This document shows, piece by piece, positions 8,629 through 24,823 of a stretch of DNA of 24,927 nt (its first letter is position 1; each line of letters opens with the position of its first letter). A program made the translations under genes and the position numbers. Source of the stretch: Propionibacteriaceae bacterium. Lineage in GTDB: Bacteria; Actinomycetota; Actinomycetes; Propionibacteriales; Propionibacteriaceae. Under the pieces are notes generated by a model, which saw only the letters and a program-made list of their open reading frames with translations, was not told the DNA's origin and ran no database searches. Where the stretch lies: the NCBI GenBank assembly GCA_020438595.1, contig JAGQUI010000007.1, forward strand, positions 1 to 24,927, written 5' to 3'.

Positions 8629-8711
8629 GTCCCGCACCCCGGGACGGTCTCTCGCCGGGCACTCCCCCACTCCGTACCTTTCCGCAAGAGCACACGAAGG
8701 AGCTGGACCCG

Positions 8712-11123
8712 GTGTCCCCAATCCACGAAGTCCCCGCCCTGCCGGAGGTCTCCGCGCGCGTGGCCGGCCTGGCCGCGCAGATGACGCTGGCGGAGAAGCT
8801 GGCCCAGCTCGTCGGCTACTGGCTCGACCAGGGCGGCAACGTCGTCGCGCCGATGCAGGGCGAGATGGCCGCCGGCCCGGGCGAGCTCGCCGAGGTCACC
8901 CGCGACGGCATCGGCCACTACACCCGGGTCTACGGCACCCGGCCGGTGGACGCCGCCGGACGCGCCGCCTGGCTGTGGGCCGAGCAGCGCCGGCTGCAGC
9001 GCGAGACCCGGCTCGGCATCCCGGCGCTCGTGCACGAGGAGTGCCTGACCGGCCTGGCCGCCTGGGGGGCGACCACGTTCCCCACCCCGCTCGCGTGGGG
9101 CGCGTCCTTCGACCCCGGGCTGGTCGAGCAGGTCGGCGCGGCGATCGGCGCCTCGATGAGCGCCCTCGGCGTGCACCAGGGCCTCGCGCCCGTGCTGGAC
9201 GTGATCCGCGACCCGCGCTGGGGCCGGGTCGACGAGTGCATCGGCGAGGACCCCTACCTGGTCGGCACGGTCGGCACCGCGTACGTGCGCGGCCTGCAGT
9301 CCCGGGGCGTGCACGCCACGCTGAAGCACTTCCTCGGCTACTCGGGATCGGCCGCCGGACGCAACCACGCCCCCGTCCACGCCGGGCCCCGCGAGGTCGC
9401 CGACGTGTTCCTGCCCCCGTTCGAGATGGCGATCCTCGACGGCGGCGTGCGCTCGGTGATGAACTCCTACGCCGACATCGACGGCATCCCGGTCGCCGCG
9501 AGCGCCGACCTGCTCACCAGAGTGCTGAGGGAGCGGCTGGGCTTCACCGGCGTCGTGGTCTCGGACTACTTCGCCGTCGGCTTCCTGCAGGTGATGCACG
9601 CCGTCGCCGCCGACCGGGGCGAGGCCGCCGCGCTGGCGCTGGCGGCCGGCATCGACGTCGAACTGCCCAACGGCGACGCCTACCTCGCGCCGCTCGCGGA
9701 GCGGATCGCGGACGGGCGCTTCGACGAGGCGTACGTGGACCGTGCCCTGCTGCGCGTCCTCGCCCAGAAGGAGGAGCTCGGCCTGCTGGACACGGACGCG
9801 TACGCCGGCGAGCCGCCGGCCTCGATCGACCTCGATCCGCCGGCGCACCAGGCCCTGGCCCGGCGCCTCGCCGAGCGCTCGGTGGTGCTGCTCGCCAACG
9901 ACGGGGTGCTCCCGCTCAACCAGGGCGCTCCCCCGCGCCGGGTCGCCGTGATCGGGCCCAACGCCGACCGGACCGAGGCGCTGCAGGGCTGCTACTCGTT
10001 CGCCAACCACGTGCTGCCCGGCTTCCCCGACCACCCGGTGGGGATCGCGATCCCGACGGTCGCCGAGGCCCTGGCCACGGCGTTCGCGGACGCCGGGTCG
10101 ACGCCCGAGTTCGTCACTGCCGCCGGCTGCGCGGTGGAGGGCGAGGACACCAGCGGGATCCCCGCGGCCGTCGAGGCGGCCACCGGCGCCGACGTGGCGA
10201 TCGTGGTCGTGGGCGACCAGGCCGGCCTGTTCGGCCGCGGCACCGTCGGCGAGGGCAACGATTCGGCGAGCCTGGTGCTGCCGGGCGTGCAGCGCGAGCT
10301 GGTGGAGGCGGTCGTCGCGACCGGCACGCCGGTGGTCCTGGTGCTCGTCACGGGCCGTCCGTACGCGGTCGGCTGGGCGCTGGACGGTCCGGGCCCGCGG
10401 CCGGCGGCGGTGCTGCAGGCCTTCTTCCCCGGCGAGGGCGGCGGTCTCGCGATCGCCGACGTGATCACGGGGGCGGTGAACCCGTCCGGCCGGCTGCCGG
10501 TCTCGCTCCCCCGCGCGGCCGGGGCGCAGCCGTACAGCTACAGCCAGCCGATCCTCGGCGGACCCTCCGAGGTCACCTCGACCGACCCGACGCCGGTGCG
10601 ACCGTTCGGGTTCGGGCTGTCGTACACGTCCTTCGCCTACTCCGGGCTGTCGGTGGACGCCGAAGTGGTCGCCGGCGGACGCTTCGCCGCCGCGGTCACG
10701 GTGACCAACACCGGGGCCGTGGCCGGGGCGGACGTGGTCCAGCTGTACGGGCACGACGTGGTCGCGTCCGTGGTGCGGCCGGTGGTGCAACTGCTCGGCT
10801 ACGCGCGCGTCGAGCTGGCTCCCGGCGAGTCGTGCCGGGTGCGGTTCGACGTGCCCACCACGCGGCTGGCGTTCGCGGGACGCAGTGGCACCCGGATCGT
10901 CGAACCGGGCAGGACCGAGGTCTGGGTGGGCTCGCACAGCACGGCGTCCGCGAGCGGAGCGCCGAGCGTCGACACCCACGGCGCCATCCCGGCCCGCGAA
11001 CTCGCCCCGGCGGCGCTGCCCGGGACGGCCACCGGCCGGGCGGTGCTCGAGGTCACGGGCGAGGTGTACGAGGTGGGCCCGGCCGACCCGCGGCTGGTCA
11101 CGGTGCAGGTCCAGCCCGGATGA
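8712..11123 (+). CDS. Glycoside hydrolase family 3 beta-xylosidase/beta-glucosidase
   Basis: The product is 803 aa from GTG 8712. It is predicted to release terminal beta-linked xylose or glucose from imported oligosaccharides. The barrel domain has GLAPVLDVIRDPRWGR (158-172), K205-H206 in LKHFLGY, and the nucleophile Asp285 in VVVSDYFAVG. The alpha/beta sandwich follows (SVVLLANDGVLPLN), and the C-terminus carries a fibronectin III-like domain (VTVTNTGAVAGADVVQLYG). There is no signal peptide, so it acts in the cytoplasm. I prefer GTG 8712 because AAGGAG lies 9 nt upstream. An ATG at 8625, overlapping the permease stop, would add 29 low-complexity residues. Xylosidase rather than glucosidase is inferred from the neighbours. 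Confidence 0.9.
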   Translation: MSPIHEVPALPEVSARVAGLAAQMTLAEKLAQLVGYWLDQGGNVVAPMQGEMAAGPGELAEVTRDGIGHYTRVYGTRPVDAAGRAAWLWAEQRRLQRETRLGIPALVHEECLTGLAAWGATTFPTPLAWGASFDPGLVEQVGAAIGASMSALGVHQGLAPVLDVIRDPRWGRVDECIGEDPYLVGTVGTAYVRGLQSRGVHATLKHFLGYSGSAAGRNHAPVHAGPREVADVFLPPFEMAILDGGVRSVMNSYADIDGIPVAASADLLTRVLRERLGFTGVVVSDYFAVGFLQVMHAVAADRGEAAALALAAGIDVELPNGDAYLAPLAERIADGRFDEAYVDRALLRVLAQKEELGLLDTDAYAGEPPASIDLDPPAHQALARRLAERSVVLLANDGVLPLNQGAPPRRVAVIGPNADRTEALQGCYSFANHVLPGFPDHPVGIAIPTVAEALATAFADAGSTPEFVTAAGCAVEGEDTSGIPAAVEAATGADVAIVVVGDQAGLFGRGTVGEGNDSASLVLPGVQRELVEAVVATGTPVVLVLVTGRPYAVGWALDGPGPRPAAVLQAFFPGEGGGLAIADVITGAVNPSGRLPVSLPRAAGAQPYSYSQPILGGPSEVTSTDPTPVRPFGFGLSYTSFAYSGLSVDAEVVAGGRFAAAVTVTNTGAVAGADVVQLYGHDVVASVVRPVVQLLGYARVELAPGESCRVRFDVPTTRLAFAGRSGTRIVEPGRTEVWVGSHSTASASGAPSVDTHGAIPARELAPAALPGTATGRAVLEVTGEVYEVGPADPRLVTVQVQPG

Positions 11124-12664
11124 GCCTGATCCGCAACCCGATCCTGCCGGGTTGCCACCCGGACCCGTCCGTCTGCCGGGTGGGCGCCGACTACTACCTG
11201 GTCACCTCGACGTTCGAGTACTTCCCGGGGCTGCCGGTGTTCCACAGCACCGACCTCGCGCACTGGGAGCCGGTCGGCCACGTGATCACCCGCGCCGGGC
11301 AGCTCGACTACTCGGGCATCGCCTCCTCGGGTGGGCTGTACGCCCCCACGATCCGGCACCACGACGGCCGGTTCTGGGTGGTCTGCACGCTGGTCGACCA
11401 GGCGGACGTGAGCCGCGGCGGCAACTTCCTGGTCACCGCCACCGATCCCGCCGGGCCGTGGTCGGACCCGGTCTGGCTGGACGCGGACGGCATCGACCCG
11501 TCCCTGTTCTTCGACGACGACGGCCGCGCCTGGCTGCACGGCACCCGGCTCGCCCGGGAGCCGCAGTGGCCCGACCAGACCGAGGTGTGGGTGCGCGAGC
11601 TCGACCTGGCCACGCTCACCCCGGTCGGGCCCGAGACGGTGATCTGGCGCGGCGCGATGCTCGGCGTGGTGTGGGCCGAGGGGCCGCACCTGTACAAGGT
11701 CGACGGCACGTACTACCTGCTCGCCGCGGAGGGCGGCACGGAGTTCCACCACAGCGTGTGCGTGGCCCGCTCGGCCTCGGTGACCGGGCCGTACGAGTCG
11801 AACCGGTGCAACCCGGTGCTCACCCACCGCCACCTCGGCCGTGGCGCCGACGTCGTCGGAGTCGGGCACGCCGACCTCGTGCAGGCGGCGGACGGCAGCT
11901 GGTGGGCAGTTCTGTTGGGCATGCGTCCGTATGGCGGCTACCACTACGCGCTCGGACGTGAGACATTTCTGGTACCAGTGGTCTGGGAGGACTCCTGGCC
12001 GGTATTTGAGCCCGGGGTGGGCCGTGTGGCCGGCCAGGTGGAGGTCCCGTTCGCCTCCCCTCGCGAACGCGGATCCGGGCGGGGTGGGCCCCAGGGGCCC
12101 ATCCCGCCGTCAGATGCCCGCTGGACCACGCTCCGCGGACCCGCAGCGGACTTCGCCTCCCCCACCGAGGACGGCTGGCTGCTGCGGCTCACCCCCGAGA
12201 CGCTCGCCGAGCCCGGCACACCCGCCCTCCTGGGCGTGCGGCAGCAGCACCGCGACCTGGACGTGCGGGTCGGCCTGCGGGCGCCGCTGCGTCCGGGCGA
12301 GGAGGCCGGGCTGGTCGTGCGCCAGTCCGAGCAGGACCACGTGCGGCTCGCCGTCGTGGGCACACCGGACGGCACGGTGGTGCGCGCGATCCACCGCAGG
12401 GCGGGGGTCGAGGCGGTGCTCGGCGAGGTGGCGGCGAGCGGCGACACGTTCGAGCTGGGCCTGCGCGTCCGCGGTGTCGACTACGCGCTGCTCGTCGACG
12501 GCGAACTCCTCGCGGTCGCGGACGGCCGGACGCTGGACAGCGTCGCCACCGGCGGCTTCCTCGGGCTGTGGCTGGGCACCTACGGCACCACGAACGGCGG
12601 CCCGACCGGGACCACCGTCGAGGTCGGGCCGTTCGAGTACTGTCCGATTGACGTCACCGAGTAG
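11120..12664 (+). CDS. Glycoside hydrolase family 43 beta-xylosidase/arabinofuranosidase
   Basis: The product is 514 aa and has the five-bladed propeller family signature. The catalytic base Asp15 lies in NPILPGCHPDPSV, the pKa-modulating Asp126 in GIDPSLFFDDDG, and the acid Glu187 in VVWAEGPHLYK. After about residue 310 comes the beta-sandwich domain found in GH43 xylosidases (LLRLTP, DLDVRVGLRAPLRPGEEAGLVVRQ, GGFLGLWLGTYG). No signal peptide is visible, so it cleaves imported xylo-oligosaccharides or removes arabinose branches. Its ATG overlaps the GH3 stop as ATGA, which implies coupling. Confidence 0.93.
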   Translation: MSLIRNPILPGCHPDPSVCRVGADYYLVTSTFEYFPGLPVFHSTDLAHWEPVGHVITRAGQLDYSGIASSGGLYAPTIRHHDGRFWVVCTLVDQADVSRGGNFLVTATDPAGPWSDPVWLDADGIDPSLFFDDDGRAWLHGTRLAREPQWPDQTEVWVRELDLATLTPVGPETVIWRGAMLGVVWAEGPHLYKVDGTYYLLAAEGGTEFHHSVCVARSASVTGPYESNRCNPVLTHRHLGRGADVVGVGHADLVQAADGSWWAVLLGMRPYGGYHYALGRETFLVPVVWEDSWPVFEPGVGRVAGQVEVPFASPRERGSGRGGPQGPIPPSDARWTTLRGPAADFASPTEDGWLLRLTPETLAEPGTPALLGVRQQHRDLDVRVGLRAPLRPGEEAGLVVRQSEQDHVRLAVVGTPDGTVVRAIHRRAGVEAVLGEVAASGDTFELGLRVRGVDYALLVDGELLAVADGRTLDSVATGGFLGLWLGTYGTTNGGPTGTTVEVGPFEYCPIDVTE

Positions 12665-12674
12665 GAGCCGCACC

Positions 12675-13643
12675 ATGCCGCTGTCCGACCTGACCCTGGC
12701 CGAACTGACCGAGTTCCGTCCCGAGGTGAGCGAGCCCGCGGGCTTCGACGCCTTCTGGGCCGACACCCTCGCCGAGGCGCGCGGGGTGCCGCAGCGGCTG
12801 GAGCTGGCGTCCGTCGAGGGGCCGGTCACGCAGCTCCAGGTGGAGGACCTCACGTTCCGCGGCTTCGGCGGCGATCAGGTGCGGGCGTGGGTGATCCGTC
12901 CGCGTTCGGCCGGACGCCTGCCGGCGGTGGTGGAGTTCATCGGCTACAACGGCGGCCGCGGCCTGCCCGCGGAGCACCTCGGCTGGGCGTCGGCGGGCTT
13001 CGTGCACGTGGTGATGGACACCCGCGGCCAGGGCAGCGGCTGGGGTGCGGGCGGCGGCACGCCCGATCCGCACGGCAGCGGACCGGCGTTCGAGGGCTTC
13101 ATGACCCGCGGCATCACCGATCCGCGCGACTACTTCTACCGGCGGGTGTTCACCGACGCCGTCCGGCTGGTCGAGGCGGTGCGGACGCTGGACTTCGTGG
13201 ACGCGGACCGGGTCGCGGTCACCGGCGGCAGCCAGGGCGGCGGGATCACGCTCGCGGTGGCGGGGCTGCTGGGCGACGCGATCGTGGGGGCGATGCCGGA
13301 CGTCCCGTTCCTGTGCCACTTCCGCCGGTCGGTGGAGCTGACGCCGGACCGTCCGTTCACCGAGGTGACGAAGTACCTGTCGGTGCACCGCGACGAGGTG
13401 GACGCGGTGTTCGACACGCTGTCCCACTTCGACGGCGCAGTGTTCGCCGGGCGGGCCGCCGCGCCCGCGCTGTTCTCGGTGGGCCTGATGGACACCATCG
13501 TGCTGCCGTCGTCGGTGTTCGCCGCCTACCACCGCTACGCCGCTGCCGACAGGGAGATCGCCGTGTACGAGTTCAACGGCCACGAGGGCGGCGGCATGTT
13601 CCACTGGCAGCGCCAGGTGGAGTGGCTGCGCGAGCGCCTGTGA
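12675..13643 (+). CDS. Acetylxylan esterase / cephalosporin-C deacetylase-like (AXE1 family)
   Basis: The product is 322 aa, the usual length for carbohydrate esterase family 7. The alpha/beta-hydrolase triad is Ser186 in TGGSQGGG, Asp273 in GLMDTIV and His303 in NGHEGGG. Other family marks are EFIGYNGGRG (oxyanion region, Tyr91), DTRGQGSGW (115-123) and the N-terminal FDAFWADTLAEA. It is predicted to remove acetyl groups from imported acetyl-xylo-oligosaccharides so that the GH43 and GH3 enzymes can act; it lacks a signal peptide. The ATG follows TAGGAG, which includes the GH43 stop codon. It is the last gene of the operon. I see no clear terminator behind it. Confidence 0.92.
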   Translation: MPLSDLTLAELTEFRPEVSEPAGFDAFWADTLAEARGVPQRLELASVEGPVTQLQVEDLTFRGFGGDQVRAWVIRPRSAGRLPAVVEFIGYNGGRGLPAEHLGWASAGFVHVVMDTRGQGSGWGAGGGTPDPHGSGPAFEGFMTRGITDPRDYFYRRVFTDAVRLVEAVRTLDFVDADRVAVTGGSQGGGITLAVAGLLGDAIVGAMPDVPFLCHFRRSVELTPDRPFTEVTKYLSVHRDEVDAVFDTLSHFDGAVFAGRAAAPALFSVGLMDTIVLPSSVFAAYHRYAAADREIAVYEFNGHEGGGMFHWQRQVEWLRERL

Positions 13644-15165: not shown

Positions 15166-15397
15166 TCATCAATCACGACGGGTTCCCGCCCAAGACGGCG
15201 CACGTCTGGCGGCGCCGCGCGAGCGCCCAAGGATCTGCCTGAACGTTGGCCGGTGATCGGCGTCACCCCATGTGAGGGGGGTCGAGAGGTCCGATGGTTC
15301 GGGACTCAGTTCAGTAGGCGGAGGCCCTGGAAGCCGCGAGTCACAACCAACGCACGATGCCGCGGAGATTTGCGGACTAATGCTGCTTGCAGAGTGC

Positions 15398-15403
15398 TAG
15401 CAT
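15398..15403 (+). promoter_or_regulatory. -10 box of the toxin-antitoxin operon
   Basis: TAGCAT (TANNNT type) ends 7 nt before the ATG at 15411, and no Shine-Dalgarno sequence is present, which points to a leaderless transcript. The -10 lies within TGCTTGCAGAGTGCTAGCA, which has TGCT/AGCA half-sites and may be the autoregulatory operator. Confidence 0.45.
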
Positions 15404-15410
15404 GGGGTGC

Positions 15411-15638
15411 ATGACGACCCTGTACATTCGTGAAGTCCCCGAGGCCGTCGCCGAGACGCTCAAGGAGCGTGCCGCCGCGCAGGGCAAGTCGTTGTCTTCC
15501 TACGTCGGCGCAGAGTTGGCCCGGATCGCCGCGCGGCCGACGAACGAGGAGATCGCCGCCCGGTTGCGGGCCAAGGACAGGTCGAAGGGCCCGAACACCG
15601 ATGAGATTGTGGCCGCGGTCGAGGCCGGACGCCGGTGA
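15411..15638 (+). CDS. vapB: VapB-like antitoxin (ribbon-helix-helix type)
   Basis: The product is 75 aa. The N-terminus TTLYIREVPEAVAETLKERAAAQGKSLSSYV is the strand-helix-helix of FitA/VapB-type DNA-binding antitoxins. The C-terminal tail (RLRAKDRSKGPNTDEIVAAVEAGRR) is the flexible part that neutralises the toxin. ATG 15411 is preferred because residue 2 begins the DNA-contacting strand. An upstream ATG at 15387 would add eight residues with no family match. It overlaps the toxin gene as GTGA. Confidence 0.85.
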   Translation: MTTLYIREVPEAVAETLKERAAAQGKSLSSYVGAELARIAARPTNEEIAARLRAKDRSKGPNTDEIVAAVEAGRR

Positions 15639-16027
15639 TCGTGGTCGATGCTTCCGCCATGGTCGAGGCGCTGGTGGGACGTGACGCCGACTCCGACCTG
15701 CTTGATGCCCTGACCGGCGACATCGACGCCCCGCACCTGCTGGATGTTGAGGTGCTGTCGGTTCTGCGGGGCCTCGTTCTGGGCGGAAGGCTCGACCCGG
15801 AGGAGGCCGTCCAGGCGCGAGAGGACCATTTCGCGTTCGTGATCACCCGGCATGAGATCGCGCCGCTGGCCGGCCGGATCTGGGAACTGCGCCACCAGTT
15901 CACCAGCTACGACGCCAGCTACCTCGCCCTCGCCGAGGCCCTCCAAGCACCCCTGGTCACCTGCGACGCCAAGCTCGCCACCAACGGCCACAACGCAGAG
16001 ATCCACCTCATCCCACAATCACACTGA
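15635..16027 (+). CDS. vapC: VapC-like PIN-domain toxin ribonuclease
   Basis: The product is 130 aa. The acidic residues of a PIN nuclease are all present: Asp5 in MIVVDASAMVE, Glu39 in LLDVEVLSVL, Asp93 in SYDASYLALAE and Asp111 in VTCDAKLA. It is predicted to be a Mg-dependent endoribonuclease cutting tRNA or rRNA when free of VapB; the precise target cannot be told. The GTG start at 15635 overlaps the antitoxin stop by four bases. The module stands alone in the accessory block and could stabilise it. Confidence 0.93.
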   Translation: MIVVDASAMVEALVGRDADSDLLDALTGDIDAPHLLDVEVLSVLRGLVLGGRLDPEEAVQAREDHFAFVITRHEIAPLAGRIWELRHQFTSYDASYLALAEALQAPLVTCDAKLATNGHNAEIHLIPQSH

Positions 16028-16119: not shown

Positions 16120-16245
16120 CGCCCACTCCTGAGCCTGCGCGTCGCCCGCCTACACTCGAGGTCAGGCGATGGAGTTCGCCGCGGCCGCGATCCCGGCCGC
16201 AATGCACCCGCTGATGACTCCTGTGGTGAACACAGGGAGGTTGTC

Positions 16246-16767
16246 ATGGAAAGGACCGAAGCGACCCTCGTCCCCGCCGCGGACGGAGTGCTGGTCGACC
16301 TGCGCTGCTCGGTGGCGCTGATCCGGAGGAACCAGGTTCTGCTGCTGCACCGTGCGGCACACCCCGACGTGGACAACGACGGCGACTGGGTGCTGCCCGG
16401 CGGCCACCCCGCCGACGGCGAGTCGATGCGGGCCTGCGCGGCGCGGGAGATCTTCGAGGAGACCGGCCTGCGCGTCGACGTCGGCCGCTGCCTGTTCGTG
16501 TACGAGATCGTGGGTCCCGGAGAGGTCGGACGCCGGGTCGAACTCGTCTTCGCCGCCACGGCCGAGAACCTCGACGAACTCGGCGCCCGGGAGTCGGACC
16601 GGCACCCGGAACTGGTGCACCTGGACGACCTGACCGCGCTCGACCTGCGGCCGCCGCTCGCCGGCCACCTGCGCGGGCTGAGGTTCCCGCAGCCGACGGG
16701 CGCGGCCTACCTGGGAAACCTGTGGCGTCCACGGCGGGACGCCGGCGGGCCCGTCCCGCTCACCTGA
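16246..16767 (+). CDS. NUDIX hydrolase
   Basis: The product is 173 aa. The complete NUDIX box runs from Gly53 to Leu75: G-H-P-A-D-G-E59, seven residues, then R67-E68-I-F-E71-E72-T-G-L. Such enzymes hydrolyse a nucleoside diphosphate linked to another group using Mg2+. The start LRCSVALIRRNQVLLLHRA is the normal first strand of the fold. ATG 16246 follows CAGGGAGG at 6 nt. The specific substrate is unknown; a housecleaning or regulatory role is possible. Confidence 0.9.
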   Translation: MERTEATLVPAADGVLVDLRCSVALIRRNQVLLLHRAAHPDVDNDGDWVLPGGHPADGESMRACAAREIFEETGLRVDVGRCLFVYEIVGPGEVGRRVELVFAATAENLDELGARESDRHPELVHLDDLTALDLRPPLAGHLRGLRFPQPTGAAYLGNLWRPRRDAGGPVPLT

Positions 16768-16779: not shown

Positions 16780-17124
16780 GTGAGGCTCAACGACGACTGG
16801 CCCAGGGACGCCCGGCTCGACCCGTTCCGGGACGCCGTGTGGGAACTGCGCCGCAACGGACGCGTGGCGGCCCACCTGGTCTGCCGGGTGGTCCCGGTGC
16901 GGCGGTTGTGGGCGAAGCGGGAGCAGCTCTGGTACCAGGTGGTGTGGCCGGACGGACGCCGCGAGCCCGCGCAACTGGACTCCGGGCCCGTCTGGAGCAT
17001 CGTCGCCGACCTCGAACAGGGCCGCTTCGAGCTGCTCGACGTCGGCCAGCACGTCTTCGACGCCGTCCCCGTCCCGCCGGACCAGCGGGACACCCTCCGC
17101 GCGCGGCTCGGCCCGCCCGACTAG
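16780..17124 (+). CDS. Conserved-looking hypothetical protein, 114 aa
   Basis: The product is rich in Arg and Trp: MRLNDDWPRDARLDPFRDAVWELRRNG, then WYQVVWPDGRREPAQL and a C-terminus QHVFDAVPVPPDQRDTLRARLG. I do not recognise the family. It starts with GTG 16780, 12 nt after the NUDIX stop. A GACGAT box lies 6 nt before the GTG and no ribosome site is seen, so it may be leaderless or read through from the NUDIX gene. Its last 26 codons lie in a 150-bp repeat that occurs again at 20325, where only this C-terminal piece remains. Confidence 0.7.
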   Translation: MRLNDDWPRDARLDPFRDAVWELRRNGRVAAHLVCRVVPVRRLWAKREQLWYQVVWPDGRREPAQLDSGPVWSIVADLEQGRFELLDVGQHVFDAVPVPPDQRDTLRARLGPPD

Positions 17125-17194
17125 CCAGGCAGCCGGTTTGCAGCGGCTGGTGTCGGGTCATGGCGGCGCAACACCCGGACCGGGACATCGGCGG
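17045..17194 (+). repeat. Left 150-bp direct repeat flanking the insert
   Basis: This stretch matches 20325-20475 with about seven differences (about 95% identity by eye). It covers the 3' end of the 114-aa gene, the short intergenic spacer and the first codons of the gene that is complete at 20441. The two copies enclose about 3.1 kb (17195-20324). Confidence 0.9.
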
Positions 17195-17234
17195 AGTGGG
17201 CGGACGCAGCCGGATTCGTCCATCCGCGAGCTGA
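17160..17234 (+). pseudogene. 5' remnant of the 148-aa membrane protein gene
   Basis: The ATG at 17160 begins MAAQHPDRDIGG, matching [12 protein letters not shown] at 20441. The frame then leaves the repeat and stops after 24 codons. The TAGTGT -10 box of the intact copy is changed to TGGTGT here, in line with decay after the insertion. Confidence 0.7.
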
Positions 17235-17240
17235 ACTGGC

Positions 17241-17246
17241 TATGGT
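17241..17246 (+). promoter_or_regulatory. -10-like box before the tRNA-like RNA
   Basis: TATGGT lies 9 nt before the first acceptor base of the tRNA-like RNA, so transcription would start at or a few bases before its 5' end. TTCGTC at 17215 is a possible -35, but the spacing of 20 bp is long. Confidence 0.35.
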
Positions 17247-17255
17247 GAAGGTCAT

Positions 17256-17328
17256 CGACACGTAGCTCAACAGTGAGAGCACTGGGCTGCAGACCCGGAG
17301 GGAGCAGGGGCGGCACCTGCCGTGTCGG
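17256..17328 (+). ncRNA. tRNA-like RNA with GCA (Cys) anticodon and aberrant T- and D-loops
   Basis: All four stems of a tRNA are perfect or nearly so. The acceptor is CGACACG (17256-17262) with CGTGTCG (17321-17327). The D stem is GCTC/GAGC (17265-17268, 17277-17280). The anticodon stem is CTGGG/CCCGG with one wobble (17282-17286, 17294-17298), and the T stem is GCAGG/CCTGC (17304-17308, 17316-17320). Spacings are exactly those of a tRNA: two linker bases TA, one base at position 26, a 5-nt variable loop and a 73-nt total with a G discriminator. The anticodon loop CTGCAGA carries GCA. The T-loop is GGCGGCA instead of TTCRANY, the D-loop AACAGTGA lacks GG, and CCA is not encoded. It is therefore unlikely to be a normal elongator tRNA. 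It ends 17 nt before a 725-aa ORF. Confidence 0.8.
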
Positions 17329-17345
17329 CGAGAAGGTCGACGGCG

Positions 17346-19523
17346 ATGCAGAAGGGCGCCATGTTCGGGTATGCGTGGGGCCAGTTCCAGAAGGCGCTGA
17401 CGTCATTCGGCGCCAGTCCGGATCCCGAGGTGCGGGCGCGGGCGGAGAAGCGAGCCAACTCCTGGGTGCAGGTGCTGAACGGCATGCTCAGCGGCCGGAT
17501 CAGGATCGGTTCCCGGACTCCGGTCAAGGGCTTTCCCGACTGGCTGACACCGGAGATCGTCCGCGGCGGTTTCGCCACCGGTGCAGCCGCCGCCGGTGGC
17601 CCACCACACCCTGACGAGATCATCCTCGCCGAGCGCGTCGGCGTCCCCGTGAACCGTGCGAGCCTGTTCGCCTGGTTCCTCTCCGACGACGGCCTCGCCC
17701 AGCTCAACGAGTGGCTCGATTCCGGTCACTACCAGGTCTTCCTGCCTGAGCACGGCGCACTCCTTGTGGTTGCGCACCTCCTGCGCCGTGGCGACTCCGA
17801 CGCCGCGGAAGACCTGCTCCGGACGCTCGAACCGTGGGCCGGCCGGATCAGGTTCTGGCCGTTCGAGGCCGTCGACTCCGAGGCCGTCGGCGTACATGTG
17901 GCGACAGTCCCGGAGGTCTCCCGGAGGCTCGCCCGGAAACGTCCGCAGCGGCAGGTCGAGGCCGAGCGCGAGGCGCTCACCATCTGGGCCCCGTTCACCG
18001 ATCGGGTCGTCGCGCACTGGTGGCTCACCAGGACGGAAGCCGGCGGCCTCGACACCACCTTTCCGCCCGGGTGGGACGCCGGGGCGCGGGCGCTGCTCGA
18101 GGAGTACGAGCAGCTCGCCGCGCAGCACCGGCTGACGCACAAGCATGCGGACCCCAAGGGCAACCTCCAGCACCTCCTGGCCGGGTTCAGGGCCAGGCTC
18201 GCCGCTCCGCCCGGGACGCCGTCGATGGGAAAGGTCCGATGGGCCGTCGCCTGCATCGTCGAGAAGCGGGGAGAACCGGGTTCACCCACCCACACGGCTC
18301 TCCGTGAACGCCAGGCCAGCACCGCGGAGCGCCCCTCCCACGCTGCCCTGGCTCACGAGGTCGCAGCCGCACTCGATGCGACCGGCGTCACCGGTGCCGT
18401 ACCGCGTCCCGAGCTGCTCGTGGACGGCTCGGAGGGGGCACGCCTGGAGTCGGTGCAGCGCGTGCTGCGCCAGGCGACGCAGGCTCCACTCCCCGACCTG
18501 CTGGGCCGCGGCATCGTCCACTCGGCCGAGACGCTCGCGGTGCTCGCGCCACAACTCACCGCCGACACCGTGGCGTCCCGCTATCCCGATCCCGTGGCGG
18601 GCGCCCTGGCGAAAGCGCTCTATGTCGCGTTCTCGAATCGCCGCAGCGTGCTCCTGCTCGACCTCGAGTCGCAGGTCCGCATCGACGCGATCCCGTGGTT
18701 CACCGCCCTTGAGCGGTGCGGCGCGAGGGACGACCGCGGAAGCCTGGCGCACGCCCAGGCCGCCGATCTGGCGACTCTCGCGCTCCGCCATTTCGCCGGC
18801 ACGATGCTCCCCAACTCCCTGGTGCGCGAACTGGCGAGGTTGTACAAGCTCGCGGGCGAGGACGTGCCACTGACCTACGAACTGGCTGCGGACATCTTCA
18901 TGGGTTCGTTCAGCCCCGTGTTCCAGCGGGCGGCCCAGGAGGCGGCGACGGTCGTCGGCGGGACCCTCTATGCCCGCTACTACGACATCGACTACGCGGC
19001 GATCTCGCGGATGGGTACGAGCGAGGCAGCCAGCTGGCCCGGCCTGCCACCCCGTACGACCGTTCCGGAGTTCGACCGACTCGCCCACGCCCGCGCCGGA
19101 GCGACCGACACCCGACGCAGCTGGAGTCCGGCCACCAACGGGAAGACCATCGAGCAGGCCCAGATCCTGACCACGCAGAACCTCGCAGTCCTCCTCAGGC
19201 GTGGGGTCGATCTCGATCCCGCCGAGCAGGCGCGAGCTGCCTGGAACGCCACCTGGGCACACCTGGCCAAGGCGGCCAACGGTCACCGGCTGCGCCACCG
19301 CAAGAACGCTGCCTTCGCCTGGCGCCAGACGGTCTTCTACCTCAGCCAGGGGTCATCCCACACCGTTGCCCAGTTCATCGAGAACGCGCAGCCGAACGCC
19401 TCCGGCCCCGGCGAAGTGGCAGAGCAGGCCGCACTGATGCTCCGGGGGCTTGCGGAGGCCCAGCGGGGCGGCCCGCCCACCGGGGGCCCGTTCCTCGGCT
19501 GGGTCACGCGGGACGCCGAGTAG
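17346..19523 (+). CDS. Large hypothetical protein partnered with the tRNA-like RNA
   Basis: The product is 725 aa with no signal peptide, membrane segment, P-loop or nuclease motif that I can see. It opens MQKGAMFGYAWGQFQKAL. Notable stretches are GMLSGRIRIGSRTPV, VRGGFATGAAAAGG and HGALLVVAHLLRRGDSDAAEDLL. The C-terminal region (IEQAQILTTQNLAVLLRRG, then RLRHRKNAAFAWRQTVFYLSQ) is basic and could bind RNA. I recall similar large uncharacterised bacterial proteins with FGYAW and GGFATG motifs, but no function. ATG 17346 is chosen because GAGAAGG lies 9 nt upstream; a GTG at 17322 falls inside the tRNA-like RNA. The RNA and gene are probably one transcript, so this protein may bind or use the RNA. 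Confidence 0.8.
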   Translation: MQKGAMFGYAWGQFQKALTSFGASPDPEVRARAEKRANSWVQVLNGMLSGRIRIGSRTPVKGFPDWLTPEIVRGGFATGAAAAGGPPHPDEIILAERVGVPVNRASLFAWFLSDDGLAQLNEWLDSGHYQVFLPEHGALLVVAHLLRRGDSDAAEDLLRTLEPWAGRIRFWPFEAVDSEAVGVHVATVPEVSRRLARKRPQRQVEAEREALTIWAPFTDRVVAHWWLTRTEAGGLDTTFPPGWDAGARALLEEYEQLAAQHRLTHKHADPKGNLQHLLAGFRARLAAPPGTPSMGKVRWAVACIVEKRGEPGSPTHTALRERQASTAERPSHAALAHEVAAALDATGVTGAVPRPELLVDGSEGARLESVQRVLRQATQAPLPDLLGRGIVHSAETLAVLAPQLTADTVASRYPDPVAGALAKALYVAFSNRRSVLLLDLESQVRIDAIPWFTALERCGARDDRGSLAHAQAADLATLALRHFAGTMLPNSLVRELARLYKLAGEDVPLTYELAADIFMGSFSPVFQRAAQEAATVVGGTLYARYYDIDYAAISRMGTSEAASWPGLPPRTTVPEFDRLAHARAGATDTRRSWSPATNGKTIEQAQILTTQNLAVLLRRGVDLDPAEQARAAWNATWAHLAKAANGHRLRHRKNAAFAWRQTVFYLSQGSSHTVAQFIENAQPNASGPGEVAEQAALMLRGLAEAQRGGPPTGGPFLGWVTRDAE

Positions 19524-19611
19524 CCGACTGGCTCGCCGAACGGCCGTCCGCCCAGTCCACCGGGCGCCCATCACCTGGTCCACGCGGTCGAGGACCGGAA
19601 CGCGAGCGGGA

Positions 19612-20211
19612 TCAGGGGCGTTCGGCCGGCGGTTCGCGGAACTTGGGGAACCACTCGACCCCCGTCCACAACTGGAGCATGCCCGGTCTGGCCGGCGACG
19701 GGTAGAAGCCGGGCGCGTCGAGCCCGCGCTCGGGTTCGGCCTTGACCCGACCCGACCAGGTCAGCACCCAGATGCCCCGGAAGCTCCACTTCATGCTGCT
19801 CCGACCACCGGCCCACACCTGGGCCGTGGGCCGGGTGACGTACCCGGCGTCCAGTTCCGCGTACAGGCGGCGCGTCGCCCACCAGCCGAGGATGATGATC
19901 GAGCCGACGGCCCCGACCCCGAGCGCCGGGAACGGCACGAATCCGCGCAGGAGAGGGATCGCGGCGAACACCGCGACCGGCACGACGTACTGCGCGATGT
20001 TCCTCACGTTGCCCGGGACTCCTGGCAGCGGGATCGGCGGCTGCTCGGGGGGCGGCCGGAACTGCCCGGCAGCCAGGCCGGCGGCGTAGCCGGGCAGGTT
20101 CCGCGGCATCATCGGCCCCTCTGCCAGGTCCGAGGGAGCACCCAACGGATCGTGGTGGTCCACCAGCACCCAGCCGACGGACTTCCGGCCAGCCCCCATC
20201 ACCACGTACAT
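19612..20211 (-). CDS. Membrane protein with DUF2510-like C-terminal motif
   Basis: The product is 199 aa. The N-terminus MYVVMGAGRKSVGWVLVDHHDP is soluble, followed by a Pro-rich linker. Two membrane segments come next (YVVPVAVFAAIPLLRGFVPF and GVGAVGSIIILGWWATRRLY). The C-terminal domain ends GFYPSPARPGMLQLWTGVEWFPKF, which resembles the YPDP..RYWDG..W pattern of DUF2510. ATG 20211 is chosen because a longer reading starts inside the right-hand repeat in antisense. The ribosome site is weak (GAGAGAG). It converges on the 725-aa gene and lies inside the same insert. Function unknown. Confidence 0.6.
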   Translation of the reverse strand: MYVVMGAGRKSVGWVLVDHHDPLGAPSDLAEGPMMPRNLPGYAAGLAAGQFRPPPEQPPIPLPGVPGNVRNIAQYVVPVAVFAAIPLLRGFVPFPALGVGAVGSIIILGWWATRRLYAELDAGYVTRPTAQVWAGGRSSMKWSFRGIWVLTWSGRVKAEPERGLDAPGFYPSPARPGMLQLWTGVEWFPKFREPPAERP

Positions 20212-20324
20212 CGTGTCCAACTCTCTCGCGCTCGGCGGCCCGGCCGGGTGGCCGCTGATGGTCGTCGCCGTCGATTCTCGGGCATTCCGGGGGGACCCGG
20301 TGGGACGCGCGACGGGAGCGAACC

Positions 20325-20404
20325 GCCAGCACGTCTTCGACGCCGTCCCCGTCCCGCCGGACCAGCGGGACACCCTCCGCGCGCGGCTCGGCTCGCCCGA
20401 CTAG
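20325..20404 (+). pseudogene. 3' remnant of the 114-aa gene
   Basis: The frame reads QHVFDAVPVPPDQRDTLRARLGSPD and ends with the same TAG as the complete gene at 16780-17124. One residue has changed (Pro to Ser). No related sequence lies upstream of the repeat border, so this is a displaced gene end. Confidence 0.75.
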
Positions 20405-20427
20405 CCAGGCAGCCGGGTTGCAGCGGC

Positions 20428-20433
20428 TAGTGT
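20428..20433 (+). promoter_or_regulatory. -10 box of the 148-aa membrane protein gene
   Basis: TAGTGT (TANNNT) is 7 nt before the ATG at 20441, with no ribosome-binding site, which fits leaderless initiation. The copy in the left repeat has lost the A of this box. Confidence 0.4.
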
Positions 20434-20440
20434 CGGGGTC

Positions 20441-20887
20441 ATGGTGACGCAACACCCGGACCGGGGCATCGGCGGCCGCGCGCTCCTCGGCCTGCTGGCG
20501 GCGGGTTTCACGTTCTTCGGGGCGTTCATCTTCACCATGGAGTACCCCGAGCCGCGCCCGGAGGGTGGCCTGGTCACCCTCCTGGCCCTCCCGGGCCTCG
20601 GACTGCTCGGCCTGATCGGCGCCGGGGTGGGCCGCGCGCTCGGACGGTGGGTTCTGGCCGGCTATGGAGTCATCCTGATCGGCGGAGCCGCTGATCTGCT
20701 CATCTCGTCGTACACCCGCGCCCCGGGGCCCGGCCGGTCGGTCGTGGTGATCTACGCCACGACGATCCTGCTCGGGTGCCTGGCGCTGGCACTGGCGATC
20801 AGGTCTTTCCTCGCACGTCGCCACGAGCTGGCGGAGTCCCGGCCGACTCGACCGTCCGAGGCCCCGCCGCTCTCCGGCACTCAGTAG
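20441..20887 (+). CDS. Small integral membrane protein, unknown function
   Basis: The product is 148 aa with four hydrophobic segments: [60 protein letters not shown] and [21 protein letters not shown] polar tail of about 25 residues follows. I do not recognise the family. It probably once followed the 114-aa gene directly and was separated from it by the 3.1-kb insert. Its last 7 bases overlap the end of the convergent xylulokinase gene. Confidence 0.7.
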
Positions 20888-22278
20888 CGTCCGGCGACCG
20901 CCCGGTAGGCCTCCAGGATCTCCGGGTGCGGGTCGGACGGTGGTGCGGCCACCAGTTCGACGGGCCAGGTGGGACGGGTGCCGGTGAGCACCCAGGCGGC
21001 CTGGCGGGCGGCGCCGTCGGCGACGTACTCGCCGGGACTGGGCACCTGGACGGGCACGTCGAACACCTGGCCGGCGATCACCTGCACGGCCGGGTTGGCC
21101 GCGGCGCCGCCGATCAGCAGGATCCGCTTCGCCTCCACCCCGAGCTGCTGCACCGCGTTGACGCCGGCGGCGAGCCCGCAGAGCATGCCCTCCACGGCGG
21201 CGCGGGCGAGGTTCGGCCGGCTGGTCGAGTTCAGGGTGAGCCCGGCCAGGGTCGCGGTCGCCTCCGGCAGGTTGGGGGTGCGCTCGCCCTCGAAGTAAGG
21301 CACCAGCACCGCTCCCCCGGCCCCCGGGGACGCCTCGAGTGCGAGCCGGGCGAACTCGTCGTGGTCGACGCCGAGCAGACCGGCGACCGCATCGAGCACC
21401 CGGGCGGCGTTCAGCGTGCAGACCAGCGGCAGGAAGCCGCCCGTGGCGTCCGCGAAACCGGCCACGGTGCCGGTCGGCTCCCCGACCGCGGCGTCGGTCG
21501 CGGCGAACACCGTGCCGGATGTGCCGAGCGAGACCGCCACGTCACCGGGACGGGCGTCCAGCCCGAGCGCGGCGGCGGCGTTGTCCCCCGCACCGGCCCC
21601 GACCACGAAACCGGGCCCGGGCACCGACTCGGCCTCGCCGAGCACCCGGGGCAGGACGGCGTCGTGGCCGAGCGCGCGGACGAGCAGGTCGCGGTCGTAC
21701 TCGCCGGTGGCGGGTGAGAAGTAGGCCGTGCCGGAGGCGTCCGAGCGGTCGGTGACCAGCTCGTCCAGCACAGGGCCGAGCTCGGACTCGCCGGCCGGCC
21801 CGTAGCCGCGCAGCCGCCAGGTCAGCCAGTCGTGCGGCAGGCACACCGCCGCCACCTTCGCGGCGTTATCGGGCTCGGCGTCGCGCAGCCAGCGCAGCTT
21901 GGTCGCGGTGAACGAGGCCACCGGCACCACGCCGGTGCGCGCCACGTACTCCGCGGCGCCCACCTCGGCCACGAGGTCCGCCGCCGCCGCGGCCGACCGG
22001 GTGTCGTTCCACAACAGGGCTGGACGAATCACCCGGCCGGCCGCGTCCAGGACGACCATGCCGTGCTGCTGGCCGGCGATGCTGACGGCTCCCGCACCAT
22101 CCAGCCCGCTGGCCCCGGCGATGGCCTCCTGCAACGCCGTCCACCAGTGCGCCGGGTCGACCTCCGTCCCTGCAGGGTGGGACGAACGGCCGGACGCCAG
22201 CAGGGCACCGGTGTCGGCATCCCGGACGACGACCTTGCAGCTCTGGGTCGAGGAGTCGACCCCGATCACACGAGCCAT
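20881..22278 (-). CDS. xylB: Xylulokinase
   Basis: The product is 465 aa, a FGGY-family sugar kinase that phosphorylates D-xylulose to xylulose 5-phosphate with ATP. The phosphate-binding start [15 protein letters not shown] is followed by the sugar-contact region [12 protein letters not shown] (Gln71-His72) and LLWNDTRS. The catalytic base is Asp232 in [13 protein letters not shown]. The adenosine motif [14 protein letters not shown] and C-terminal [14 protein letters not shown] complete the fold. The ATG at 22278 has GGAGAGAGG upstream. It lies downstream of the xylose isomerase gene on the same strand, with a long hairpin between them. Confidence 0.95.
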
Positions 22279-22294
22279 GAATCAGCCTCTCTCC

Positions 22295-22348
22295 CCGAGT
22301 TGTCAGAATCTGGTGCGGCTATAGGCGCAGGAGATTCTGACAACTCGG
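22295..22348. repeat. 17-bp perfect hairpin between xylA and xylB
   Basis: CCGAGTTGTCAGAATCT (22295-22311) is the exact reverse complement of 22332-22348 around a 20-nt loop, which itself holds a TGCG/CGCA mini-stem. It occupies most of the 87-bp spacer between the stop of xylA and the start of xylB. It may be a REP-like repeat, a processing site or a partial terminator that lowers xylB expression. Confidence 0.75.
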
Positions 22349-22365
22349 CAGTGGGGGACGGGGGG

Positions 22366-23556
22366 TCAGCGGGCGCCGAGGAGGTGCTCGGTGGCCAGCT
22401 GCTGGAGCCGGACGAAGCCGAAGCCCTTGCCGTTGTAGTACGCGGCGGCGTCGAAGTCCTCCCAGGCGGAGGCGTCGGCCAGCAGCTCGGCGTAGCCCTC
22501 ACCCTCGGCCAGCGTCGGCACGGCCAGCTCGGGCACCTTGCAGTCGGCCAGCACCTGCTGCACCTCCGGATCGGCCCGGAACGCCGCCGCCCGCTCCTTC
22601 AGCAGCAGGTAGGTCTTCATGTTCGCCTGCACCGAGTCCCAGACGCCGGTCTCGTCCTCGGTCCGCGAGGGCTTGTAGTCGAAGTGCCGCATGCCGGTGT
22701 AGGCCTGGCCGCCGTCCGGGCCGCCGTTCTCCAGCAGGTCGACCAGCGCGAACGCGTTGTGCAGGTCGCCGTGGCCGAAGACCAGGTCCTGGTCGTACTT
22801 GATGCCGCGCTGCCCGTTCAGGTCGATGTGGAACAGCTTGCCGTGGTACAGCGCCTGCGAGATCGCGGTGGCGAAGTTCAGCCCGGCCATCTGCTCGTGC
22901 CCCACCTCGGGGTTCAGGCCGACCATCTCCGGGCGCTCCAGCGACTCGATGAACGCCAGCGCATGCCCGACCGTCGGCAGCAGGATGTCGCCGCGGGGCT
23001 CGTTCGGCTTCGGCTCGATCGCGAACCGGATGTCATAGCCGGAGTCGACGACGTACTGGCCGAGCATGTTCACGGCCTCGCGGTAGCGCTCCAGCGCCGA
23101 ACGGATGTCCTTGGCCGCGTCGTACTCCGCGCCCTCGCGTCCACCCCACATCACGAACACCTTCGCACCCAGCTCCGCGGCCAGGTCGAGGTTGCGCAGC
23201 ACCTTGCGCAGCGCGAACCGGCGCACGGCGCGGTCGTTGGAGGTGAACCCGCCGTCCTTGAACACCGGCTGGGAGAACAGGTTGGTGGTGATCATCGGCA
23301 CCTTCAAGCCGGTCGCGGCCAGTGCGCCCTTCAACCGCTCGATCTGGTGGCGCCGCTCGTCCTCGGTCGATCCGAACGCGAACAGGTCGTCGTCATGGAA
23401 CGTCAGGCCGTAGGCGCCGTAGGAGGCGAGCTTCTCCACCACGTGCACCACGTCCAGCGGGGCACGGGTCGGACCGCCGAACGGGTCCTGGCCGTTGTAG
23501 CCGACCGTCCACAGGCCGAAGGTGAACTGGTCCGAAGGCGAAGGAGTGAGGGTCAC
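22366..23556 (-). CDS. xylA: Xylose isomerase
   Basis: The product is 396 aa and converts D-xylose to D-xylulose. It is the short class I type found in Streptomyces, and residue numbers match that enzyme. His54 and Asp57 lie in TFHDDDLF, Phe94 in TTNLF and Trp137 in VFVMWGG. Glu181 and Lys183 are in IEPKPNEP, Glu217 and His220 in NPEVGHEQ, and Asp245, Asp255 and Asp257 in [15 protein letters not shown]. The last metal ligand is in [11 protein letters not shown]. The GTG start at 23556 gives [22 protein letters not shown], the usual family opening. The gene is divergent from the ROK regulator, with a palindrome between them. Confidence 0.97.
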
Positions 23557-23589
23557 GGGTGGTGTCCATTCTCTCGACGGTGAGTATTC

Positions 23590-23604
23590 GTTGTGGTACA
23601 CAAC
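23590..23604. promoter_or_regulatory. XylR-type operator in the xylA / regulator divergent region
   Basis: GTTGTGGTACACAAC is a perfect 15-bp palindrome (GTTGTG, centre GTA, CACAAC). It lies 34 bp upstream of xylA and 56 bp upstream of the regulator gene. It covers the -35 region of a plus-strand TAGTCT -10 candidate (23622-23627). It is the most likely binding site for the ROK regulator; binding is inferred. Confidence 0.65.
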
Positions 23605-23659
23605 ATATCTCATCCGTCCGGTAGTCTGCCAGCGGATCAGGGAAGTGGGGAGGCCGGGC

Positions 23660-24823
23660 GTGCCCAAGGGAACCACCGAGGACGTGAGGCAGCAGAACCT
23701 CGCGGCCGTACTGGGCCTCCTCTACCGCGGCGGGCCCGCGTCCCGCTCCTCGCTGGGCCGGCGCACCGGACGCAACCGGTCCACGATCGGCAGCCTGGTC
23801 GGCGACCTCGTCGACCTCGGCCTGGTCAGCGAGAGCGACCCGGACCTGGTCGGCCAGGTGGGCCGTCCCAGCCCGGTGGTGTCGATCCGTCCCGAGGTGA
23901 CCGCGATCGCGGTGAACCCCGAGATCGACGCGCTCACGATCGGGCTGGTGGGCCTCGACGGCACCGTGCGCAGCACGATCCGCCACGAGTACGACCGGAT
24001 CCCCACCGCAGCGCAGGTCCTCGACGTGTGCGCCACGGTGATCGCCGGCATGGGGGCCGACCGGGACGGACTGCTGGTCGCGGGCGTGGGGGTCGCGGTG
24101 CCCGGCCAGGTGCGCACCGGCGACGGCGTCGTCCGCAACGCCCCCCACCTGGACTGGCACGACCAGCCCTTCGGCCAACCCCTCGCCGAGGCGACCGGCC
24201 ACCGGGTGCTGGTGGCCAACGACGCCGCGCTCGGCGCGCTGGCCGAGCACGAGTTCGGCGCCGGACGCGACCACGACCACCTGGTCTACGTCAACGGCGG
24301 CGCCTCCGGCATCGGCGGCGGCGTGATCACCGGCGGGACGCTGCTCGGCGGCGGCGCCGGCTACGCGGGCGAGCTGGGCCACGTGCGGGTCTCCGGCTCG
24401 AACGCCCTCGACTCGGCCGGCTTCGCAGGGACGCTGGAGGCGGAGGTCACCCGGGCGGAACTGCTCGCCGCCCTCGGCCTGCCCCGCGCCGACCCCGCAC
24501 AGTTCGAGGCCGCGCTGCTCGCCGACCGGTCGGACGCCGTCGCGGCGATCGTCGAGCGGCAGCTCGGCCACCTGGGCACCGCCCTGGCCACCGCGATCAA
24601 CCTGTTCAACCCGGAGGTGATCGCGCTCGGCGGCTTCCTCGCCGCGCTGCAGGCCTACCACCCCACACGCCTCGACGAGCTGGTCGCCGGCGCGGCGCTG
24701 GCGCCCTCCCTGGAGGGCGTCCGGATCACCCCGGCCGAACTGGGCCCGAACCTGCTCATGGTCGGGGCGGCCGGGCTGGCGTTCCGTCCCCTGCTGGACG
24801 ACCCCGCCTCGATCAGCGGCTGA
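23660..24823 (+). CDS. ROK-family transcriptional regulator (XylR-like)
   Basis: The product is 387 aa. The N-terminal winged helix-turn-helix is at about residues 5-60 ([41 protein letters not shown]). The ROK sugar-kinase-like domain follows, with [21 protein letters not shown] and the signature [30 protein letters not shown] ending at His241. The usual zinc motif CxCGxxGCxE is replaced by [13 protein letters not shown], so no cysteine ligands are left. The GTG start has GGGGAGG about 6 nt upstream. It is divergent from xylA and very probably represses xylAB, with xylose as inducer; activation is not excluded. Confidence 0.92.

What the first reader, a model, noticed from the sequence alone, without database searches (positions are those of the whole stretch)
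17256..19523. tRNA-like RNA fused in layout to a 725-aa protein of unknown function
The sequence forms a complete, correctly spaced tRNA cloverleaf with a Cys anticodon, but the T-loop is GGCGGCA, the D-loop lacks GG and no CCA is encoded. It ends 17 nt before the start of a large ORF that has its own ribosome site. A functional tRNA would need the D-loop/T-loop contacts, so selection appears to keep the stems for another purpose. From established knowledge, tRNA-like or Y RNAs occur beside TROVE and SPFH/Band-7 scaffold proteins of RNA-repair systems. The partner here shows neither domain by eye, so this could be a different system. Possible roles are sensing tRNA damage, binding tRNA-modifying or tRNA-cleaving enzymes, or regulating the ORF in cis.
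Basis: partly seen in the sequence, partly recalled or inferred. Interest (0 to 1): 0.88.

Follow-up and report, generated by a model that had tools for sequence, protein, structure and literature searches.

The report
tRNA mimic paired with orphan protein
A tRNA-shaped RNA with a swappable anticodon loop sits at the very start of the message for a large protein of unknown fold, and the pair stays together in distantly related bacteria, pointing to an undescribed RNA-protein system that uses tRNA mimicry.

Summary
The cloverleaf is real: Rfam's tRNA model scores it 48.7 bits, though ARAGORN calls no tRNA. Homologues of the adjacent protein occur in many Actinobacteria and in Verrucomicrobia, Planctomycetota and myxobacteria. 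85 of 88 sources carry one to three tRNA-like structures (TLS) upstream; the misses are an N-terminally truncated gene, a gene fragment, and one near-full-length gene whose genome holds an unlinked TLS. In 117 genomes of one family, the 6 with the gene are the 6 with a TLS. Compensatory change keeps the stems (440 of 440 cells paired, 38 changed on both sides). The anticodon loop is hypervariable (29 triplets) on an otherwise conserved body. TANNNT lies 8-12 nt upstream in 91 of 125 loci; the first usable start codon follows within 1-3 nt in 79 of 87 type-1 loci. The protein matches no family convincingly, and its confident helical model has no clear PDB match. Best reading: a mobile module of a protein and its tRNA-mimic RNA, probably excised from its own mRNA and acting in trans. 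Its biochemical role is unproven; an RNA-controlled defence or toxin-like effector is my leading guess.

The parts
17256..17328 (+). Type-1 tRNA-like structure (TLS), GCA in the anticodon position, T-loop GGCGGCA, D-loop without GG, G73, no CCA
   Evidence: covariation in 21 sequences; 84.2 bits with the TLS model, (the window is one of the sequences the model was built from)
17241..17246 (+). -10-like hexamer TATGGT ending 9 nt before the TLS, so transcription would start at or just before the TLS
   Evidence: TANNNT at 8-12 nt in 91 of 125 loci, shuffle mean 4.7; the E. coli-type promoter scan finds nothing here
17346..19523 (+). Partner gene, 725 aa from ATG 17346 (720 aa if ATG 17361 is the start), mostly helical protein without known domain
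17331..17336 (+). Shine-Dalgarno-like AGAAGG, 9 nt before ATG 17346; a second one (AGAAGGG, 17350-17356) lies 4 nt before ATG 17361
   Evidence: read directly
17045..17194 (+). Left direct repeat flanking the module
   Evidence: 97% over 113 nt, 93% over 40 nt
20325..20475 (+). Right direct repeat; the TLS+gene module and ORF 19612-20373 (-) lie between the repeats, suggesting a recent insertion or duplication

Best explanation
This is a stand-alone, mobile two-part module: one to three tRNA-mimic RNAs plus one large, mostly helical protein. Transcription starts at the 5' edge of the first TLS. The transcript is TLS(s) followed by mRNA, and a tRNA 3'-processing cut after position 73 would release the mimic and, in most type-1 members, leave an almost leaderless mRNA beginning 1-3 nt before AUG. 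The freed mimic then works in trans as the RNA partner of the protein. Shown by comparison: conserved structure, near-strict linkage, -10 and start-codon geometry, tandem copies with different loops, and one genome in which TLS and gene are unlinked. Inferred: excision, direct binding, and that the exchangeable anticodon loop sets specificity. My leading guess for purpose, clearly an inference, is an RNA-controlled defence or toxin-like effector: the protein is held by, or reads, tRNA mimics whose anticodon loops imitate particular tRNAs, so that attack on or occupancy of those loops switches the protein.
For: Structure under selection: 440/440 cells paired, 38 compensatory. Linkage: 85 of 88 sources, 26 of 26 further near-full-length loci and 6 of 6 plasmid copies. 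Concordance: a TLS in 6 of 6 gene-bearing and 0 of 111 other genomes of one family (E at most 1e-11 for the RNA); in 26 gene-bearing genomes all 27 matches of 74 bits or more, in 19 genomes, lie at the gene, and 20 gene-less genomes give at most 60.2 bits. T-loop type changes once on a tree of 114 proteins, so RNA type and protein lineage stay together. TANNNT ends 8-12 nt before the first TLS in 91 of 125 loci. First usable start codon 1-3 nt after the TLS in 79 of 87 type-1 loci. Tandem copies in 22 of 125 loci, many 1-5 nt apart, with all triplets different in 21 of 22. An unlinked TLS, with a -10-like hexamer before it and a hairpin after it, in the genome whose gene lacks one. Mobility: patchy occurrence (27 of 394, 74 of 394, 28 of 196), plasmid records, no neighbour family in more than 7 of 25 loci, direct repeats around the module here.
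Against: No expression, processing or binding data. The trans argument rests on one fragmentary genome (G1123), whose orphan TLS has an odd T-loop (ATCAACA) and could be a leftover of a deleted module. The anticodon-loop rate (24.8%) is no higher than at four-fold sites (22.5%; 5303 of 20000 neutral simulations reach it), so diversifying selection is not shown; only clumping is (P about 0.01). No catalytic domain or fold was found, so 'effector' is a guess. No recurrent defence neighbourhood was seen and PADLOC gives only one stray match among 57 homologues. Of 18 disrupted or partial gene copies that I looked at, 11 have a TLS and 7 do not, so decay patterns do not prove an antitoxin role. 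L006 has an open but N-terminally truncated gene and no type-1 TLS. Type-2 members and the window have an SD-like site and a start further away, so a leaderless mRNA is not general.
Confidence: 0.5

Rival explanations
1. The TLS is only a cis-acting leader: the protein, an aminoacyl-tRNA synthetase or a tRNA enzyme binds it in the mRNA and controls translation of the gene, as in the E. coli thrS operator (recalled).
For: TLS at the 5' end of the transcript and abutting the start codon; no room for an SD between TLS and ATG in most type-1 loci.
Against: Tandem TLS with different loops, in L126 with the first copy about 270 nt before the start; unlinked TLS in G1123; anticodon loop shows no complementarity to its own flanks beyond swapped controls; type-2 starts lie 20-36 nt away in 21 of 27.
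Confidence: 0.22
2. The TLS is a dedicated aminoacyl donor that escapes the ribosome, charged and used by the protein for a non-ribosomal transfer, like the S. aureus cell-wall tRNA-Gly (recalled).
For: Loss of D-loop GG and T-loop TTCRA in type 1 would weaken ribosome and EF-Tu use (recalled); body resembles tRNA-Val; type 2 keeps a normal elbow and 6 of 27 are followed by CCA.
Against: Anticodons vary over 29 triplets including CTA and TCA, which would read stop codons; position 37 is often a pyrimidine (37 of 133); the discriminator differs between types; the protein shows no known transferase domain.
Confidence: 0.12
3. The anticodon loop is a short guide (positions 34-38) that directs the protein to RNA targets by pairing.
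For: Fixed C32-U33 followed by 4-5 variable nt in a conserved scaffold; arrays with different loops.
Against: Four or five nt give little specificity; no target in the 150-nt flanks; A35 is rare (3 of 133), unlike a free guide.
Confidence: 0.1
4. A decayed tRNA or chance cloverleaf beside an unrelated ORF.
For: ARAGORN rejects it; real tRNA-Val genes have a similar body.
Against: Compensatory changes, gene linkage and genome-level concordance.
Confidence: 0.01

Closest known systems
Bacterial Y RNA with Rsr (Ro60/TROVE protein), e.g. YrlA in Salmonella (PMC7790460, passages read)
   Same: A noncoding RNA with a tRNA-like domain encoded beside a large RNA-binding protein
   Different: No TROVE match in 57 homologues; here the entire RNA is a cloverleaf and its anticodon loop varies; no recurring neighbour gene, though neighbours were clustered and not all named
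AbiF with RNA RCd22 in C. difficile (PMC12373285, abstract and list of sections read), and type III toxin-antitoxin modules (recalled)
   Same: A single protein gene associated with a structured RNA that may hold more than one motif copy; the RNA can act in trans
   Different: No Abi_2, ToxN or other toxin domain; the RNA is a tRNA mimic; toxicity untested
Non-ribosomal tRNA-Gly of Staphylococcus cell-wall synthesis (recalled)
   Same: tRNA bodies with an altered elbow that avoid translation
   Different: There the anticodon is fixed; here it is hypervariable and the gene sits directly behind the RNA
tRNA-mimicking mRNA leaders such as the E. coli thrS operator (recalled)
   Same: tRNA-like fold in an mRNA leader
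   Different: Complete four-arm cloverleaf, tandem copies, an unlinked copy, no synthetase gene

Membership tests
Bacterial Y RNA / Rsr (TROVE) | TROVE domain in the protein | tested here: not met
   Pfam scan of 57 homologues: 12 families, each in one member only, none of them TROVE, at E 0.1
Bacterial Y RNA / Rsr (TROVE) | Y RNA with a Ro-binding stem plus a tRNA-like domain | tested here: not met
   At the locus Rfam gives the tRNA model and one chance-level match (sR42, E 0.98), no Y RNA family; the element is a bare cloverleaf of about 72 nt
Type III toxin-antitoxin / AbiF | ToxN-like or Abi_2 toxin domain | tested here: not met
   no such match for the window protein in Pfam, NCBIfam or PADLOC, nor among 57 homologues in Pfam and PADLOC
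Type III toxin-antitoxin / AbiF | Structured RNA directly upstream, often repeated | tested here: met
   TLS in 85 of 88 sources; tandem in 22 of 125 loci
Type III toxin-antitoxin / AbiF | Protein is toxic and neutralised by the RNA | not testable with these tools
   needs expression experiments
Translational tRNA | D-loop GG and T-loop TTCRA elbow contacts | tested here: not met
   absent in the window and in type 1; present in type 2
Translational tRNA | Fixed anticodon matching body identity | tested here: not met
   29 triplets on closely similar bodies
SPFH/Band-7 RNA-repair operon | Partner protein is an SPFH scaffold | tested here: not met
   no SPFH/Band-7 match in 57 homologues
SPFH/Band-7 RNA-repair operon | RtcB-type or SPFH genes nearby | tested here: inconclusive
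   no recurring neighbour in 25 loci; 14 window neighbours scanned without such a domain, but neighbours elsewhere were not named
Known protein folds in the PDB | Clear structural match of the partner protein | tested here: inconclusive

The most novel reading that the evidence does not exclude
A bacterial immune-like system built on tRNA mimicry: the protein is an effector kept inactive by decoy tRNAs excised from its own mRNA. Each decoy displays the anticodon loop of one tRNA, and when an invader's or rival's nuclease attacks that loop, the decoy is cut and the effector is released. Arrays with several loops would widen the range of attacks sensed, and loop exchange would follow the enemies met by each lineage.
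Probability: 0.2. Interest if true: 0.95.

Novelty: categorically new. Interest (0 to 1): 0.86.

Why it matters
It would be a previously unnamed RNA-protein system, common in Streptomyces and relatives (74 of 394 genomes of the family of Streptomyces iconiensis carry all or part of the gene), with a protein family lacking any recognised fold and a tRNA mimic whose anticodon loop is exchanged while the scaffold is kept. It offers a test case for how tRNA-shaped RNAs leave translation, for mRNAs that may become leaderless by tRNA processing, and possibly for defence based on tRNA decoys. It also warns annotators: ARAGORN calls such elements tRNA-Gln, -Thr or -Pro in 4 of 7 loci.

Tried and rejected
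Chance or pseudogene: rejected. Conserved operon partner: in 25 loci no neighbour family occurs in more than 7; the sharing is mostly between sets of loci with several neighbours in common, whose kinship I did not check, and in L103 the script missed the main gene. Pairing of the anticodon loop with the 150-nt flanks: no excess. Diversifying selection above neutral: not shown. Phage origin: no match to P0036 in 50,697 phage records, and none confirmed in viral contigs, by a scan that rests on two short peptide patterns. PDB sequence relatives: none. Fold searches of the full and the C-terminal model: no clear match; the N-terminal part was not folded alone. PHROGs: one match at E 0.086 in the window protein, nothing in two others. 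NCBIfam: one match at E 0.11, far below its cut-off. Promoter/terminator scan with E. coli-type consensus: none in 17100-19700. Literature: 10 searches showed no description in their listings; the library is open-access PMC only, without bioRxiv. The 'tRNA-like' passages opened in three Streptomyces papers are citations of the 1987 bldA-type paper by Lawlor and colleagues.

Corrections: TLS types were mis-sorted and for two Verrucomicrobium rows; one search has the corrected count. In one search the test for pairs with 3 or more changes used a threshold of 6 although 7 were observed, so I quote only the zero-change test. One search showed that four hits matched in pieces (L167, L171, L172, L173) are open frames, so I no longer count them as broken. 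One TLS-model match (L070:601-674) is an ordinary tRNA-Pro and one (L027:1254-1323) is degenerate; both were left out of loop counts from then on (one search left out only the first). L003 and L045 have the same gene and TLS and are probably one genome; L035/L167 and L039/L168 are the same places, so the 125 loci hold at least three duplicates.

Full report
Observation. The window holds a complete cloverleaf at 17256-17328 (+), read directly and scored 48.7 bits by Rfam's tRNA model. ARAGORN calls no tRNA. Folding the single sequence does not give the full cloverleaf, so comparative evidence decides.

Partner protein. The ORF 17346-19523 has no Pfam match at E 1, no PADLOC match, and one NCBIfam match at E 0.11 far below its cut-off. 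Among 57 homologues Pfam and PADLOC give only stray matches, each in a single member. One search finds 169 homologues at E 0.001 or better (120 listed); named ones are mainly Streptomyces, Actinomadura, Nocardiopsis, Actinoplanes, Arthrobacter and Citricoccus, with a planctomycete. One search adds Archangium, Minicystis and an Akkermansiaceae bacterium, and adds Verrucomicrobium. No distant relative with an informative annotation is listed ('transcriptional regulator' is the only name besides 'hypothetical protein' and 'uncharacterized protein'). AlphaFold2 gives a confident, mostly helical model (mean pLDDT 90.0, pTM 0.83); Foldseek finds nothing at E 0.001 in the PDB or the viral library. 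The C-terminal half, folded alone (pLDDT 88.8), also has no clear match. No sequence relative is in the PDB.

Linkage. Of 7 first loci, 6 have a tRNA match just upstream of the gene. A covariance model of 21 TLS was run over 88 sources: 85 have at least one TLS. The misses are L006, an open frame lacking about 80 N-terminal residues; L043, a gene fragment; and L096. Later additions, 26 of 26 near-full-length loci of the Streptomyces family sample and 6 of 6 plasmid copies, all have one. At genome level, among 26 gene-bearing genomes all 27 matches of at least 74 bits (in 19 genomes) lie beside the gene. Four unlinked matches that I read (62.8-69.4 bits) are tRNA genes with a TAC anticodon; the other, weaker ones were not read. 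Type-2 TLS score in the range of real tRNAs with this model, so that statement covers type 1 only. Twenty gene-less genomes of the same family sample reach 60.2 bits at most (10 of 20 have a match at E 1e-9). In 117 genomes of another family, the 6 with a TLS at E 1e-11 or better are the 6 with the gene. L096 is the telling exception: its gene follows an SD-like GAGGAG and has no TLS in the 5 kb held, yet the same genome holds a TLS on another contig with a -10-like hexamer before it and a strong hairpin after it. This suggests action in trans, but the genome is fragmentary and the orphan's T-loop is unusual.

Structure and variation. On 21 type-1 sequences every cell pairs (440 of 440), with 38 cells changed on both sides in 8 pairs (shuffle mean 11.9), and RNAalifold independently returns the cloverleaf. 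Two types exist. Type 1 has a T-loop beginning GGC and no D-loop GG; type 2 has a T-loop beginning TTC (one CCC) and D-loop GG. On a FastTree of 114 partner proteins the type changes once. The anticodon triplet changes at least 55 times over 106 tips (mean of 50 shuffles 79.9). C32 and U33 do not vary in the 90 distinct TLS, and 34-37 form the main cluster of high entropy there, with single variable sites in the D- and T-loops. 29 full triplets occur in 135 distinct TLS; A at position 35 is seen in 3 of 133. In 38 independent nearest pairs (protein identity at least 70%), positions 34-37 differ in 37 of 149 comparisons (24.8%), the other TLS positions in 78 of 2508 (3.1%), and four-fold sites of the gene by 22.5% on average. 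So the loop drifts about as fast as silent sites overall, but in bursts: 22 of 38 pairs are unchanged against 15.2 expected (P 0.012), while some pairs with an otherwise identical TLS differ at 3 or 4 of 4 loop positions. Tandem copies occur in 22 of 125 loci and carry different triplets in 21 of 22.

Gene architecture. A TANNNT hexamer ends 8-12 nt before the first TLS in 91 of 125 loci (shuffle mean 4.7, maximum 12 of 200 shuffles). In 79 of 87 type-1 loci the first start codon that opens a frame of over 600 codons lies 1-3 nt after position 73, leaving no room for an SD. Type-2 starts lie 20-36 nt away in 21 of 27, and 20 of 27 have an SD-like site. Hence the TLS appears to form the 5' end of the transcript, and a normal tRNA 3' cut would leave a nearly leaderless mRNA in most type-1 members, which actinobacteria can translate (recalled). 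In the window the start lies further off: ATG 17346 behind AGAAGG, or ATG 17361 behind AGAAGGG.

Mobility. The gene is patchy: 27 of 394 in a class sample, 74 of 394 in the family sample around Streptomyces iconiensis, 28 of 196 in an order sample, 2 of 288 in the phylum sample around Verrucomicrobium (each includes its seed genome). Six plasmid records, some of them megabase linear replicons, carry it; no phage record does. No neighbour family is found in more than 7 of 25 loci. Of 18 disrupted or partial copies looked at (L040, L041, L043, L097, L168, L170, L178-L188, L196), 11 have a TLS and 7 (L043, L179, L180, L183, L185, L187, L188) do not. In the window, direct repeats of about 150 nt, 3.28 kb apart, flank the module and one neighbouring ORF inside a xylan/xylose utilisation cluster.

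Mechanism. I commit to a two-part module in which the TLS is released from the 5' end of its mRNA and serves the protein as an RNA partner. The partner relation is well supported by comparison; excision and binding are inferences. For purpose I favour an RNA-controlled effector, by analogy with AbiF and its RNA RCd22 (PMC12373285, abstract) and with YrlA, whose tRNA-like domain was suggested by its authors as a possible competitive inhibitor of an anticodon nuclease (PMC7790460, passages). Exchangeable anticodon loops on a fixed scaffold would suit bait or specificity use. A cis-only leader, a dedicated aminoacyl donor and a short guide remain open rivals.

Novelty. Membership in Y RNA/Rsr, type III toxin-antitoxin/AbiF, SPFH scaffolds and ordinary tRNAs each fails at least one tested defining feature. 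I found no description in the listings of ten literature searches of an open-access library without preprints, so prior description elsewhere cannot be excluded.

Noticed in passing
window 17045-17194 and 20325-20475: Near-identical direct repeats of about 150 nt, 3280 bp apart, bracket the TLS+gene module; they duplicate the 3' end of ORF 16780-17124 and the start of ORF 20441-20887.
   Followed up: partly
window 16156-16230: Fluoride riboswitch match barely above the Rfam cut-off (35.1 against 34 bits), upstream of a NUDIX gene (16249-16767); no fluoride transporter was among the neighbours scanned.
   Followed up: no
window 4225-13643 and 20881-23676: Sugar (xylan/xylose) utilisation cluster: LacI regulator, solute-binding protein, acetyl xylan esterase, FGGY kinase and a xylose-isomerase-like protein.
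   Followed up: no
window 15387-16027: PIN-domain protein (15635-16027) preceded by a small ORF (15387-15638), looking like a VapBC-type toxin-antitoxin pair about 1.2 kb upstream of the TLS; the pairing is my reading.
   Followed up: no
L175 1501-1570: Orphan TLS in the genome whose partner gene lacks one, with a D-loop holding GG, T-loop ATCAACA and a strong hairpin downstream.
   Followed up: partly
L066 and L068, first TLS: Two loci with the same printed flanks (30 nt up, 40 nt down) whose first TLS anticodon loops differ at one base (CTCCAGA and CTTCAGA).
   Followed up: no
L163-L165: Real tRNA-Val (TAC) genes resemble the TLS body, and TLS triplets rarely have A35; I recall A35 as a ValRS identity element, so avoidance of charging is possible.
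   Followed up: no
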